Positions 10,691 through 34,007 of a stretch of DNA of 64,000 nt are shown here, in pieces; within the stretch, counting starts at the first letter, position 1, and the number at the start of each line of letters is the position of its first letter. Position numbers and translations under genes: made by a program. The stretch spans positions 62,001 to 126,000 of the forward strand of contig JACKQL020000115.1 of NCBI GenBank assembly GCA_018296165.2, read 5' to 3'. This DNA comes from Termitomyces sp. T153. Taxonomy: Eukaryota; Basidiomycota; Agaricomycetes; Agaricales; Lyophyllaceae. The notes below the pieces were generated by a model. It had not been told where the DNA came from, did no database searches, and saw only the letters and a list, made by a program, of their open reading frames with translations.

Positions 10691-12277
10691 ATGCCATCTT
10701 CCATGTATTTTCCAGCAGTGTCCCCATCCTCATTGGCACATACCTTGACTTCTTTCTTGAAGGACTCTGAGGGTCGGCAAGACTATAGGTGGGTGCAGGC
10801 AATGTACTGTAGTTGTAAGTACTGTCTCTTGCTTGTCATGGCCAGAGTGCTGAATAAGTCCCATCAGAGTTGTTGGTGGCAGTGGTGGGCCCCTCAGGGC
10901 CTTTGTTGAGGAGGCTCCAGTGCAGTTAGCAGGGGAAGTGGTCCCCACTTTTCATTCCAGGCCTGGTATTGCCCTCAGGGTGGTTTGCCCCATCTCTACA
11001 GGGTCGAGAGTTGTGCAGATGGACATGATGCCAGAGTACTTTGCAGAGGCCGTGGGGCAAGCAAGAGGTTCCCTAATGTTAGAGTGGTGTTAGGTGGTGG
11101 CCCTAGTGTGCCATTGGCATGTTCCTTCCTTATCAAGCTAACCCATGTTTCTAGTGTGCATCCTGTACCCAGCAGGGTGAACAGTGCAAGTTTGAGGAGC
11201 CTGTGCTGGGAGTGTGGCAGGACATGTCAGTATGTCTCCTGTATCACTCATGGCATGAGAAGTGCTCTGTCACTCTGAGTTGGCATGCTGCTTGCATTGC
11301 GGTGGAGCAGGGGTGGGACTACAAGTGGGTTGCCATGCAGTTGGAGGGGGGTTGGAGGGGTAGGGTCTCAAGGAGGGGTTCTGGGGTAGAGAGGGGAGTT
11401 GGTGCAGAGTGGCCCCCAATAAAGGTTGGGCCCCCACAGGGTGGGTGGAGGGAGGGGGCCTCTGTGACATGTGACAAGGGTAAATGGAGGGCATCCCTCT
11501 CACCAGAGGTGGGGCCTAGCAAGCAAGCATGGGGGGAGCTGGCAATGGTGGGCCCTCTGGATCCCATGGTGTATTTCCTGACTTCTGAGGCCTTGGTTGA
11601 GCAGTCTGCAGAAGGGTTGTGGTTGGTTGCCAAGGCTTTCCCATGGCATCAGATGGAGGAGTTGGAGAGGTTGTTGGCCACATGTGGGGAGGAAGTTTGT
11701 AGGGTGGGGGAGGAGAGGGATGGGCTTCAGAGGGAACTGGACAGGGCTCAGAAAAAATGGGACTTAACACTTAGGAATAAGGGCATTGCTGTGGGGACCG
11801 CCATGGAGTGACTGTCACAGCTTCAAGAGCTGCGAGCACATATGGGGCTGTTGGAGGTGTGGGCAGAGGCAGCATGCAACAATTGGAGGAGTCAGGGATG
11901 TGGGAAACTTAGTGGGGATCCAGTGTGGAGGTGACCCAAGCAATAGTGGAGAGGGTGCAGTGGCAGGAAGAGTGGCTTGCCAATGAGATGGCCTTGGGGC
12001 AGCAGGGAGTGCTCTGTAAGTGCTCCCTTCATCTCCCATTTACTATGAGCTAACATTTGATTCCACAGACTGGGCCAGGGAGCACTGCATCCTCCTTGAT
12101 GGAGCATCAGTGGTGCTGGGGTCCATCCACAACAGGTTGGCAAGGATGCCTGGGGATCTTCTGCTGGAGTTGGGGCAGGGGGTCATGCAGATGGGGCATC
12201 TGCTGGTGGAACATTGGCAGAGGGCAACAGCAGACCCTGGAGCATGGTGGGAGGGGGGCATCCCAAAGTTCTGGTGA
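10691..12277 (+). pseudogene. Antisense accessory gene of element A (Zn2Cys6-like, coiled coil)
   Basis: Opposite strand to gag-pol. Model: exon 1 10691-10814, intron 10815-10867 (GTAAGT...CAG), exon 2 10868-12015, intron 12016-12068 (GTAAGT...GCTAAC...CAG), exon 3 12069-12277. Both introns are phase 1, as in copies B and C. Exon 2, in the frame set by exon 1, holds C-X2-C-X6-C (11155-11187), 15 residues, then C-X2-Y-X6-C ending near 11260. The fifth Cys is Tyr here by a G to A change and is Cys in copy B. The spacing fits fungal Zn2Cys6 clusters. A CASC cluster, an AVEQGWD segment, a helical region and an LLDGAS-containing C-terminal domain follow in order. Stops (mostly CGA to TGA or CAG to TAG) and one frameshift after 11811 inactivate it. 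The product could be a DNA-binding regulator; this is inference. Confidence 0.7.
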
Positions 12278-12640
12278 TGGTAGTAGCACAGCTGGAGGTG
12301 GATCTGGTGGGAAGGATAGCAGAGGTGGATTCAGAGGGGGAGGGGGAGTAGGGGGTTTCTGTATTCTGGTTTCTTGTTGCCCCATGCTCCCTTATTTCTG
12401 TATTTCATCCTTGTAGCTTTTGTGAATATCGGACTTCTTGTACTTCTGCTGAGCATGAGAAGTTTTCAGAATGAGTGAGGGGCAGAGTAAGTGAAAACAC
12501 ATAGGAAGAGTACTTGTGGGAGTTGAATCTCTGATAAATCCAGAGGCAGGGGTTATGCCCACTAATGCCATCTGCACTTGCTAGTCCCGGGGGTCCTGGG
12601 GCTTGGTGGAGTGTTGTCAATGGAAGTCCCAGAGTTCATT
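12278..12640. other. Non-coding link between antisense gene and pol 3' end
   Basis: Convergent 3' ends: the plus-strand accessory gene stops at 12277 and the minus-strand chromodomain frame ends near 12620. The GGTTATGCC...CACTAATGCCATCTG block near 12553 recurs in elements C (22965) and D (29230), so it is an element-wide conserved 3' region. No further gene is visible. Confidence 0.6.
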
Positions 12641-32190: not shown

Positions 32191-33319
32191 TGTCAGGTTC
32201 TACTGACCACGGGGGCTCAGCTACACTGGGTGAGTCCTTACTAGGCAGACATGATTCCCTGCACTGACAACTGGGCACTCAGAGGTGTTCCAAACACTGA
32301 GGACTTATGAGGATAGTTAGTGGAAATTGATTCAAGCAAGTCCGGGGAGGTCCAGAGGAGTGGAGGATGAGTTGTGGGGAAGGGGGACAGGCTTGGCAGG
32401 GTTCAGGCATAAGTCCATATGTGAGTATTGCAGGTGCAGAGGAGGCGGAGGCTATGTGAATGACAGGAGCAGAGCTGGAGTTCTGATGGGGGATCAACAG
32501 GGATTGATAGGGTTCAGGCTGAGCATGTAGCAAGGTCCGGAGTTGGTGAAAGAGTGTCAGAGGTTTGTAATTGTAATTGCAGAGTTCGTGAGGGCATTAT
32601 GGTTGGGAGGACTTGAACATGATAGACAGAATCAAACAAGATGAGATGGAGTCAAACAAAGTGAGACAGAGACAAGATGAGAACAAGAATAGATTCAGGC
32701 AGAGACACAGAACAATAATGAAATAATAATGGAATAGAGATAAGACAAGACTGGGAGACTGAGAGTAAGAAAATGAGGCACAGAACACAAAACACAAGAG
32801 AGAAATAATCAGACCATAGGTAACATTAAGCAGTATCCAGACTAGAGTATGGGGAGCTACTTTACGTCTTATATACTGACTACTGAAGAGCTCCAGAAAT
32901 GTTGGCTGTGGTGGTGGGGCTTGGCAGAGCTCGATGGAGTTGACAGGTGTTGGTTATGACCAGAGGGCAGGCCGCGTTGATATGTTGATGGGATCAATTG
33001 TAACATAGTCTGTTCCAAGGTTGTTGTGATACTCCAGGGTAAGTCAGGGAAGCCAGGGTGTCAAGTTGATGACATGTAATGGAGTCAGGCATGGTGGGGG
33101 AGTGGTCCCAGGGGCTCAGGAAGTCCAGGGGAAGCACCGGCAGCTGCGGGGAAGATGTTGGAGTTGGCCAGGGGGCTGTTGGAGTTAGCCGAGAATGTGT
33201 CAGAGTTAGCTGGAGTAGGTGTGGAGTGCTGGGGAAGTTTGACGAAGCATTGGGGGGGTTTCCGGGGAAGCGGGGGTTTGTTGGGCAGTATATGGGGCTT
33301 CAGGGAACGGGTCATGACA
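32191..33319 (-). repeat. 5' LTR of element D
   Basis: TGTCAGG...TCATGACA, 1,129 bp, pairs with 27471-28598. TATATAAG on the minus strand lies near 32868-32875. Confidence 0.9.
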
Positions 33320-34007
33320 GCAGGTGGCATGCATTGCCATGGAGCAGGGGTGGGACAAGGACTGGGTGCAGGGTCAGCTGGGCAAGGCATGGAAGACCCA
33401 GGTATCAGGGGAGGGGAGCACAGGGCAGGTGGGGCCTCTGCAGGGTGGGTGGAGGGAGGGGGCATCCTTAGTGGTGGACCATGGAAAGTGGAGAGCTTCT
33501 CTGCTATCAGGGGCGGGGCCCAGCAAGAGGCTGTGGGGGCATGAGCCAATGGCAGAGTGGAGAAGGAGGCATTGGAGCAGGTGTGGAACACCTTGGTGTG
33601 AGTAGCGCTGGAGTGAGTGCCAGAGGTATGGGGCTTGCAGGAGCATCCAATGCAGTGGGAGGTGCAGCTTATGGAGGAGGCAGAGGAGTGGGAAATGGTG
33701 CCAGAGGGTAGTTTGCTGCAGGTGGAGTTGGAGGTAGTGAGGCAGAGGGAGGATTGGCTGGCTAATGAGGCTGCTTTGGGGTGCACAGGGATCCTTCATA
33801 AGTGTCTTTCCCAATTCTCTGCCTATTACTAAAAGGAGTCATTTTTTGGGGTCAGGCTGGGTGCAGGAGCACTGGGTTCTCTTGGATGGCACCTCTGCAG
33901 TGTTTGCATTGATCCAAGACAGATTGGCACAGATGTCCATGGGTCAGCCTCTAGAGTTGCAGCAGGGGATGGTGAGGGTGGGGAGGTTGCTGGCAGGGCA
34001 TTGGCAG

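What the first reader, a model, noticed from the sequence alone, without database searches (positions are those of the whole stretch)
10691..34007. A spliced antisense gene with a Zn2Cys6-like cluster inside a chromodomain retrotransposon family
Elements A, B and C each carry, on the strand opposite to gag-pol and between integrase and the 3' LTR, a three-exon gene. Both introns are short and lie at the same position and in the same phase (phase 1). In C they make the exons sum to exactly 360 codons with only two CAG/CGA-to-stop changes. In A and B the frame set by exon 1 runs into C-X2-C-X6-C-X15-C-X2-C-X6-C with identical spacing in two diverged copies. That fits the fungal Zn2Cys6 (PF00172) pattern C-X2-C-X6-C-X5-16-C-X2-C-X6-8-C. 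An acidic N terminus and a coiled coil complete a transcription-factor-like layout. A retrotransposon carrying its own antisense regulator-like gene would be a new control or host-interaction system. Antisense extra ORFs are known in some plant gypsy elements; I know of no fungal Zn-cluster case but could not search.
Basis: partly seen in the sequence, partly recalled or inferred. Interest (0 to 1): 0.93.

Follow-up and report, generated by a model that had tools for sequence, protein, structure and literature searches.

The report
Backward spliced gene in mushroom retrotransposons
In a termite-farmed mushroom, a large family of jumping genes carries, written backwards, an extra spliced gene for a probable nuclear zinc-cluster protein, and some family members that lack their own copying machinery still seem to keep this gene, and only this gene, in working order.

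Summary
The antisense gene is real. The window is from a Termitomyces-like genome. Element A is a chromodomain Ty3/gypsy element. Pol lies beside it in 34 of 34 Zn-type loci. Between two families the spliced frame is under purifying selection (transversion omega 0.28; 0.13 in the Cys region). The six Cys are kept in 32-34 of 34 loci.

Its only constrained coding region found is this gene, without the Zn region (window C against a young copy: omega 0.06 in the gene's main exon, 0.7-1.4 elsewhere).

The cluster has Zn2Cys6 spacing but scores below Pfam's cut-off; its halves look swapped relative to PUT3, with weak support. Antisense genes are known in plant elements and fungal Boty. New, as far as I found, are the zinc-cluster type, the conserved splicing and the gag-pol-less carriers. 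A nuclear regulator role is inferred; transcription and function are untested.

The parts
9520..10478 (-). 3' LTR of element A (autonomous type, on the minus strand); partner 39841-40796; 5-bp target duplication GGCAT
   Evidence: self-comparison 88.6%; flanks
39841..40796 (-). 5' LTR of element A
12584..15355 (-). pol (RT, RNase H, integrase region) of element A; chromodomain seen in the related pol of L004
   Evidence: tblastn; Pfam RVT_1 and a sub-cut-off rve match in the window frames, Chromo in L004
10691..10814 (+). antisense gene of A, exon 1
   Evidence: like exon 1 of L069-L072
10815..10867 (+). intron 1 of A (53 nt, phase 1)
10868..11105 (+). antisense gene of A, exon 2 (decayed)
   Evidence: GT 33/34, AG 33/34 in A-type loci
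11155..12015 (+). antisense gene of A, exon 3: Cys cluster (11155-11265, fifth Cys reads Tyr), basic stretch, coiled coil; has stops/frameshifts in this copy
12016..12068 (+). intron 3 of A (53 nt, phase 1)
12069..12351 (+). antisense gene of A, exon 4 (frameshifted copy)
18675..19798 (-).
   Evidence: self-comparison 87.2%
36788..37924 (-). 5' LTR of element B
20016..20145 (+). antisense gene of B, exon 1; intron 1 (from 20146, donor GT now AT) is interrupted by element C at 20179 and resumes at 27101-27116
27117..27287 (+). antisense gene of B, exon 2; intron 2 is 27288-27337
27338..27470 (+). antisense gene of B, start of exon 3 with the Cys cluster C-X2-C-X6-C-X15-C-X2-C-X6-C (27338-27448, two stops inside); cut by element D at 27471
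33325..33797 (+). antisense gene of B, rest of exon 3 after element D and its target duplication
33856..34007 (+). antisense gene of B, exon 4, cut at 34008 by another insertion; intron 3 is 33798-33855
20179..27095 (-). element C, whole: LTRs 20179-21363 and 25922-27095 (90.1%); target duplication GTGGC; no pol detected
21577..21694 (+). antisense gene of C, exon 1; intron 1 is 21695-21744 (donor GT now AT)
21745..22404 (+). antisense gene of C, exon 2: basic stretch and coiled coil, no Cys cluster
22405..22459 (+). last intron of C (55 nt, phase 1)
22460..22761 (+). antisense gene of C, exon 3 (equivalent of exon 4 of the Zn type)
27471..33319 (-). element D nested in B: same LTR type (target duplication GCAGG), no pol detected, antisense gene reduced to exon 1 and a fragment (about 28817-29020)

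Best explanation
Shown by sequence: a Termitomyces chromodomain Ty3/gypsy superfamily carries a protein-coding gene antisense to gag-pol, between pol and the 3' LTR, with short introns. Introns can persist in a retroelement here because splice signals on the antisense strand are not read in the genomic RNA that is reverse-transcribed (inference from how such elements copy themselves). Three kinds occur: (1) pol-bearing elements with the Cys-cluster protein; (2) element B of the window and similar annotated proteins, with the Cys cluster (no pol in the window copy; others not tested); (3) C-type elements without pol, in which the Cys-cluster region is absent, but basic stretch, coiled coil and C-terminal domain are kept under selection. 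Inferred: the mRNA starts in or next to the 3' LTR. The product goes to the nucleus, dimerises by the coiled coil and, in the Zn type, binds DNA or chromatin through a swapped-order Zn2Cys6-like cluster to regulate the element's own LTR transcription or its nuclear/integration step, much as HBZ does for HTLV-1. Pol-less elements are moved by enzymes of A-type elements. They keep the gene either because it favours their own copies or because the Zn-less form modifies the full-length regulator.
For: Gene real and spliced: the same introns in related loci (AG acceptors kept in 30, 33 and 32 of 34 A-type loci and in 33 and 32 of 33 C-type loci; 30 of 37 lost donors read AT). By all changes omega is lowest in the spliced + frame on both sides of a frame-shifting 55-nt intron. 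Annotations of other Termitomyces genomes include models with the same junctions. Selection: 0.28, 90 pairs; Cys region 0.13; 16 N: 19 S fixed transversions against 3.32:1, p 6.6e-5; C exon 2: 1.5 N: 7.5 S, omega 0.06; rest of internal region 0.74-1.42 over the six frames. Autonomy: pol beside the gene in 34/34 A-type and 0/33 C-type loci; a complete young C-type element without pol; 8 LTR pairs only 4.68-4.97 kb apart, none with a scored integrase. Shared PPT, LTR start, PBS and 5-bp target duplications. Zn2Cys6 likeness: the only two PDB matches at E<=10 are PUT3; re-ordered pieces 29.1, 27.2 and 22.9 bits against at most 22.0 in 14 Cys-preserving shuffles. Parallel: Retand antisense genes with predicted DNA binding (PMC11963269, passages).
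Against: No transcript or protein evidence was available. PF00172 is below its cut-off in the whole natural proteins (best E 0.0052 of 32), and the PDB matches are weak (E 3.8 and 6.3; the profile held one chimeric row of eight). One of 14 shuffles also passed the cut-off (22.0 bits) and three more reached 15-18 bits, so much of the score comes from the Cys spacing alone. The AlphaFold model is poor (mean pLDDT 47), so the Zn fold is unproven. Absence of the Cys cluster in the abundant C-type shows it is not needed for everything the gene does. Selection on a trans-acting gene in a pol-less element needs a cis-advantage that is not shown. Omega pair counts are not independent, and the unique-event counts for C are small (shared transversions 0 N: 4 S; singletons 9 N: 8 S). 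A mirrored sense-strand frame also has low omega (0.46 A-type, 0.13 C-type, 0.09), and for C exon 4 by transversions it is lower than the gene's frame (0.07 against 0.16).
Confidence: 0.55

Rival explanations
1. The antisense protein is real but structural or accessory rather than a transcription regulator: for example a nuclear-import, integration-targeting or chromatin factor that is packaged or acts on the pre-integration complex.
For: The coiled coil and C-terminal domain are kept in all types while the Cys cluster is absent from the C-type. The C-type keeps the gene without pol, which fits a factor acting on element DNA or RNA. PMC7264820 discusses accessory roles for plant antisense ORFs (passages).
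Against: The strongest constraint in A-type lies in the Cys region (omega 0.13), with a DNA-binding-like motif near a basic stretch. Neither reading has functional data.
Confidence: 0.27
2. The open antisense frame is a by-product: either a mirror of a sense-strand gene or a chance open frame in GC-rich DNA.
For: A long sense-strand ORF (359 aa in L076) mirrors the gene, and that frame also shows low omega (0.46 in A-type, 0.13 in C-type) and few stops (24 against 26 in the gene frame over 32 C-type loci). For C exon 4 by transversions the mirrored frame is lower (0.07 against 0.16, 1.8 changes per pair).
Against: Because the last intron is 55 nt, the low-omega register of the mirrored frame differs between the exons on its two sides (worked out from the coordinates), so no single sense ORF can be the constrained one. 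In the other five exon-4 comparisons and the spliced + frame has the lowest omega. The proteins of A, B and C types align through exon 4.
Confidence: 0.04
3. The antisense RNA matters, not the protein: double-stranded RNA formed with the genomic RNA feeds silencing or dampens transposition.
For: Antisense transcription in other elements is discussed in this light in PMC7264820 (passages); here no transcript data exist.
Against: Synonymous changes are tolerated more than amino-acid changes, which an RNA-only role does not predict.
Confidence: 0.06
4. The gene is kept because it serves the fungus (a domesticated regulator family) and the elements are only its vehicle.
For: Many annotated copies in several Termitomyces genomes and constraint in pol-less elements.
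Against: Copies lie in dispersed elements, some with LTRs 97-99% alike, and decay nearly neutrally within the window-A family (omega 0.75), as expected for element genes, not for host genes at fixed places.
Confidence: 0.08

Closest known systems
Antisense additional ORFs (aORF-3R) of plant Ty3/gypsy elements: Grande gene23, RIRE2, Retand TRP28 (PMC7264820, PMC11963269)
   Same: Antisense to gag-pol between pol and the 3' LTR; present in most copies; nuclear or DNA-binding role proposed; some Retand elements are non-autonomous.
   Different: Other kingdom; no TRP28 (PF04195) match; Zn2Cys6-like cluster instead; conserved short introns; elements without pol in which this gene is the only constrained coding region found.
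Boty-like retrotransposons of Botrytis cinerea with antisense gene brtn (Zhao et al. 2011, seen only as cited in PMC7264820, PMC8365987, PMC4227169)
   Same: Fungal Ty3/gypsy element (gag-pol with chromodomain per PMC4227169) with one additional antisense gene.
HBZ of HTLV-1 (background knowledge; mentioned in PMC11963269)
   Same: Antisense gene next to the 3' LTR encoding a nuclear coiled-coil regulator (recalled).
   Different: HBZ is a bZIP protein (recalled); no bZIP match here; function of the fungal protein untested.
Fungal Zn2Cys6 transcription factors (PF00172; PUT3 nearest in the PDB)
   Same: Six Cys with C-X2-C-X6-C halves, basic residues, coiled coil in the same protein.
   Different: Below the Pfam cut-off; half-motifs apparently in swapped order; 15-residue loop; extra conserved C...EQGWD..WV..QL stretch after the cluster.
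LARD-type non-autonomous LTR retrotransposons (name and description recalled)
   Same: LTRs, PBS, PPT and target duplications without gag-pol.
   Different: LARDs are, as I recall, non-coding; here one antisense gene is under purifying selection.

Membership tests
Fungal Zn2Cys6 cluster (PF00172) | six Cys with C-X2-C-X6-C ... C-X2-C-X6-8-C spacing | tested here: met
   Of 34 A-type loci the six Cys are kept in 34, 32, 33, 34, 32 and 34; the same spacing in B of the window. C-type lacks the cluster
Fungal Zn2Cys6 cluster (PF00172) | score above Pfam gathering cut-off (21 bits) | tested here: not met
   13 bits for L069, 11.5 for L071; 19 of 32 proteins match at E<=1, best E 0.0052. A 46-aa piece alone reaches 21.3 bits as two half-matches
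Fungal Zn2Cys6 cluster (PF00172) | basic half-motif first, second half-motif after it | tested here: not met
   The second half-motif matches PUT3's first and vice versa, weakly; re-ordered pieces score 29.1, 27.2 and 22.9 bits as one stretch against 24.5 and 19.6 for natural order with shortened loop, as two stretches; best of 14 shuffles 22.0
Fungal Zn2Cys6 cluster (PF00172) | binds two zinc ions and DNA | not testable with these tools
   structure model too poor (mean pLDDT 47)
[quoted passage not shown]
   pol beside the gene in 34 of 34 A-type loci, convergent in the 8 whose coordinates were printed; loci were found through the gene, so copies of the element without the gene were not counted
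Retand TRP28 antisense genes | TRP28 domain (PF04195) | tested here: not met
   no PF04195 match in 32 proteins at E<=1
Boty brtn | sequence homology to BRTN | not tested
   no brtn sequence was at hand; the paper is not held
HBZ-like bZIP antisense genes | bZIP domain | tested here: not met
   no bZIP match
Chromodomain Ty3/gypsy (chromovirus) for element A and kin | integrase followed by chromodomain | tested here: met
   PF00665 and PF00385 in the related pol L004; A aligns to it at 76% over the whole 356-aa frame
Non-autonomous LTR retrotransposon (C-type) | LTR pair, PBS, PPT and target duplication without gag-pol | tested here: met
   gag was judged only by the lack of any constrained frame

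The most novel reading that the evidence does not exclude
A two-tier antisense control system in a fungal retroelement superfamily: autonomous elements encode, antisense and spliced, a regulator with a swapped-order Zn2Cys6 domain. A pol-less lineage has lost just the DNA-binding part while preserving the dimerisation part, making it a self-propagating modifier (competitor or partner) of the full-length regulator.
Probability: 0.25. Interest if true: 0.9.

Novelty: new variant of a known kind. Interest (0 to 1): 0.74.

Why it matters
What antisense genes of LTR retrotransposons do is left open in the two plant papers consulted here (PMC7264820, PMC11963269). The Termitomyces family offers a sharper test: the gene is spliced, has a recognisable DNA-binding-like motif, and is the only constrained coding part found in young elements that lack pol. 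That separates the gene's own benefit from that of gag-pol. If the swapped Zn2Cys6 cluster binds DNA, it would be an unusual arrangement of a main fungal transcription-factor domain. It also warns genome annotators: searches matched 145 and 139 annotated proteins (overlap not counted; the 120 listed in each are all from Termitomyces and called 'hypothetical protein'), and some of the 24 sequences I read have a misread last intron.

Tried and rejected
Sense-strand gene: rejected because the constrained register shifts with the intron, with one small comparison against. Other genes in C-type elements: none found; six-frame omega over 2.47 kb is 0.74-1.42, with single 300-nt windows as low as 0.32 on few changes. 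Homologues outside Termitomyces: none among the listed hits of three searches. The search needs shared 5-residue words, 25 and 19 weaker hits were not listed, and one search scored only the 7996 best candidates, so absence elsewhere is not shown. Structure: the one AlphaFold job gave mean pLDDT 47, so no fold search was run. Genome-wide autonomy of the B-type was not tested; loci could not be cut. Literature: the ten paper searches listed no paper that I recognised as describing a Zn-cluster antisense gene in a retrotransposon; I judged by titles and abstract starts and looked into four papers (PMC7264820, PMC8365987, PMC4227169, PMC11963269). Most subscription papers are missing from that library.
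Full report
Origin. The window is G000:C115:62001-126000 of a 72.4-Mb assembly. Its antisense gene matches annotated 'hypothetical proteins' of Termitomyces at up to 99% identity; all 120 listed of 145 hits are Termitomyces. 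I take the host to be a Termitomyces, close to strain Mn162; this is an inference from protein identity.

Map. Self-comparison gives nested LTR elements, all on the minus strand. A has LTRs 9520-10478 and 39841-40796 (88.6%). C has 20179-21363 and 25922-27095 (90.1%) and sits inside B. D (27471-33319; LTRs about 92.9%) sits inside B too. Target duplications of 5 bp are visible for A (GGCAT), C (GTGGC) and D (GCAGG), not for B. Gypsy-type pol homology is found only in A (12584-15355); copia-like remnants lie at 2281-3829. Pol of a related copy (L004) has integrase and a chromodomain.

Gene structure. Copies of the A-type gene with open frames (L069-L072, chosen for that) show four exons: a Ser-rich exon 1, exon 2, exon 3 beginning with the first Cys of the cluster, and exon 4. 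Introns are 51, 49 and 51 nt in L069. The C-type gene has the same first and last introns (50 and 55 nt), but its middle exon runs to the basic stretch without the Cys cluster. The acceptor AG is kept in 30, 33 and 32 of 34 A-type loci for introns 1-3 and in 33 and 32 of 33 C-type loci (first, last intron). The donor GT is kept in 21, 33 and 22 of 34, and in 26 and 29 of 33; 30 of the 37 lost donors read AT, the change expected when a CpG at the exon-intron border decays. Annotated proteins of other Termitomyces genomes include models with the same junctions (P0036, P0040, P0122, P0137), while others read through the last intron into another frame (for example P0001, P0015).

How common. In its own genome the C-type piece has 150 matches, 150 of 1228 first-look candidates having been scored; the A-type piece 150, from 150 scored of 1422; the B-type piece 174, not all listed, from 150 scored of 1660. 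These are lower bounds, and the three sets may overlap. In the 169-codon C-type piece 10 of the 30 best loci (window copy included) have no stop. In A-type exon 3, 5 of 34 loci have none in the first 280 codons, four of them chosen for being open.

Selection. CpG decay dominates differences between copies, so transversions were counted apart. A-type, family of L069/L071/L072 against 30 loci of the window-A family (90 pairs): omega 0.28 in the antisense frame, 1.63-2.58 in four other frames and 0.46 in the mirrored frame that shares third positions; within the window-A family 0.75. By domain: Cys cluster with the EQGWD stretch 0.13, linker 0.28, coiled coil 0.35. Counting each fixed difference once, transversions are 16 nonsynonymous to 19 synonymous where 3.32:1 is expected (p 6.6e-5). 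C-type, 3 young against 29 other loci (87 pairs): 0.05 by transversions and 0.33 by all changes; mirrored frame 0.13 and 0.43. Unique transversions are few: 0 N: 4 S when shared by two or more copies, 9 N: 8 S as singletons, against 3.16:1. Window C against a young copy (L076): 1.5 N: 7.5 S in exon 2 (omega 0.06; mirrored frame 0.09), but 0.74-1.42 over the six frames in the other 2.47 kb of internal sequence. Pair counts are not independent, so the unique counts should carry the weight.

Which strand. A long open frame exists on the sense strand too (359 aa in L076). The last intron is 55 nt, so the antisense reading register changes across it. By all changes, exon 4 is again most constrained in the spliced antisense frame (0.29 A-type, 0.25 C-type, 0.43 A against C), and the low mirrored frame moves with it (registers worked out from the coordinates). 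By transversions exon 4 is 0.47 in A-type and 0.42 A against C, the lowest of the six each time; for C-type the mirrored frame is lower (0.07 against 0.16), on 1.8 changes per pair. A single sense-strand gene does not account for both sides of the intron.

Pol-less carriers. Pol lies beside the gene in 34 of 34 A-type loci and in 0 of 33 C-type loci, with about 1.1 kb beyond the gene held in the C-type loci; in the 8 A-type loci whose coordinates were printed pol is convergent with the gene. The 33 are the 30 best matches to window C and 3 chosen for an open frame. Among hit lists, a scored integrase lies within 3 kb of 41 of 149 A-type and 1 of 149 C-type hits; the integrase search scored only 150 of 1065 candidates, so these are minima. 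A complete young C-type element (L076: LTRs 96.9% alike, 3.8 kb internal) has no pol match; one 15-residue match lies outside it. Forty scored LTR candidates (of 1696) gave matches at 99-100% that include 8 pairs 4.68-4.97 kb apart; 6 of the 8 hold a listed C-type gene and none a scored integrase. PPT, LTR start and PBS are shared between A-type and C-type elements, so mobilisation by A-type enzymes is likely but not shown.

The Cys cluster. Spacing is C-X2-C-X6-C-X15-C-X2-C-X6-C. Of 34 loci the six Cys are kept in 34, 32, 33, 34, 32 and 34; the losses read Tyr. PF00172 is below its cut-off in the whole natural proteins (13 and 11.5 bits; 19 of 32 at E<=1, best 0.0052). A profile of eight Cys regions, one of them chimeric, finds two PDB sequences at E<=10, both PUT3 (E 3.8 and 6.3), with the halves in swapped order. 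Pieces re-ordered to the classical order reach 29.1, 27.2 and 22.9 bits in one stretch. Fourteen Cys-preserving shuffles reach at most 22.0, one of them thus above the cut-off; the 11 shuffles of the L069 piece reach at most 17.8. Natural order with a shortened loop gives 24.5 and 19.6 bits as two half-matches. I conclude: Zn2Cys6-like, probably with swapped halves, not a tested member. The AlphaFold model gives only a long helix at residues 152-246 (pLDDT 52-77 per block).

Known precedents. [quoted passage not shown] A 2025 survey of Retand reports antisense potential coding regions in all recently active clusters, 97% of them with TRP28, a domain predicted to bind DNA, and some non-autonomous elements (PMC11963269, passages including the abstract). 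I therefore call this a new variant of a known kind. What I found in none of these are the zinc-cluster-like domain, conserved splicing of the antisense gene, and an element lineage without pol whose only constrained coding sequence is the antisense gene.

Reading. The coding, spliced, constrained nature is close to certain on sequence evidence. The regulator role rests on domain likeness, a basic stretch, a coiled coil and analogy, and is a lead. Why a pol-less element keeps a gene that could act in trans is the most interesting open point: either the product favours the element that made it, or the Zn-less form interferes with or assists the full-length one.

Noticed in passing
L039-L072 and L009-L038, exon regions: Differences between copies are dominated by transitions of CpG type (Arg codons turned to Gln, Trp, Cys, His or stop; splice donors GT to AT after C), which points to cytosine methylation of the elements in this fungus.
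   Followed up: partly
window 57443-60142 and 61308-64000; 1-663 and 54912-55574: Two long inverted repeats of 99.7% and 99.4% identity, apparently unrelated to the finding.
   Followed up: no
contigs C10, C39, C109, C112, C241, C256, C284, C289, C306 of G000, first 4 kb: Integrase or antisense-gene matches lie 3.8-4.0 kb from the contig start in these contigs, so young elements seem to break the assembly and the copy number may be underestimated.
   Followed up: no
L076 (reverse complement) 1-2287 and 5962-7441: LTR sequence of the C-type element occurs in tandem on both sides of one internal region, as recombination between neighbouring copies could leave.
   Followed up: no
window 2281-3829: Decayed copia-type remnants on the minus strand.
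   Followed up: no
P0233, P0238, P0239, P0240 and window element B: A third form of the gene: Cys cluster present, but N- and C-terminal parts like the C-type, so probably the form from which the C-type arose by deletion; whether such elements carry pol genome-wide is untested.
   Followed up: partly
downstream of the Cys cluster, A-type exon 3 residues 41-63: A strongly conserved stretch L.W.A.C.A.EQGWD..WV..QL with a seventh Cys (kept in 34 of 34 loci) follows the cluster; Pfam gave no match there.
   Followed up: no
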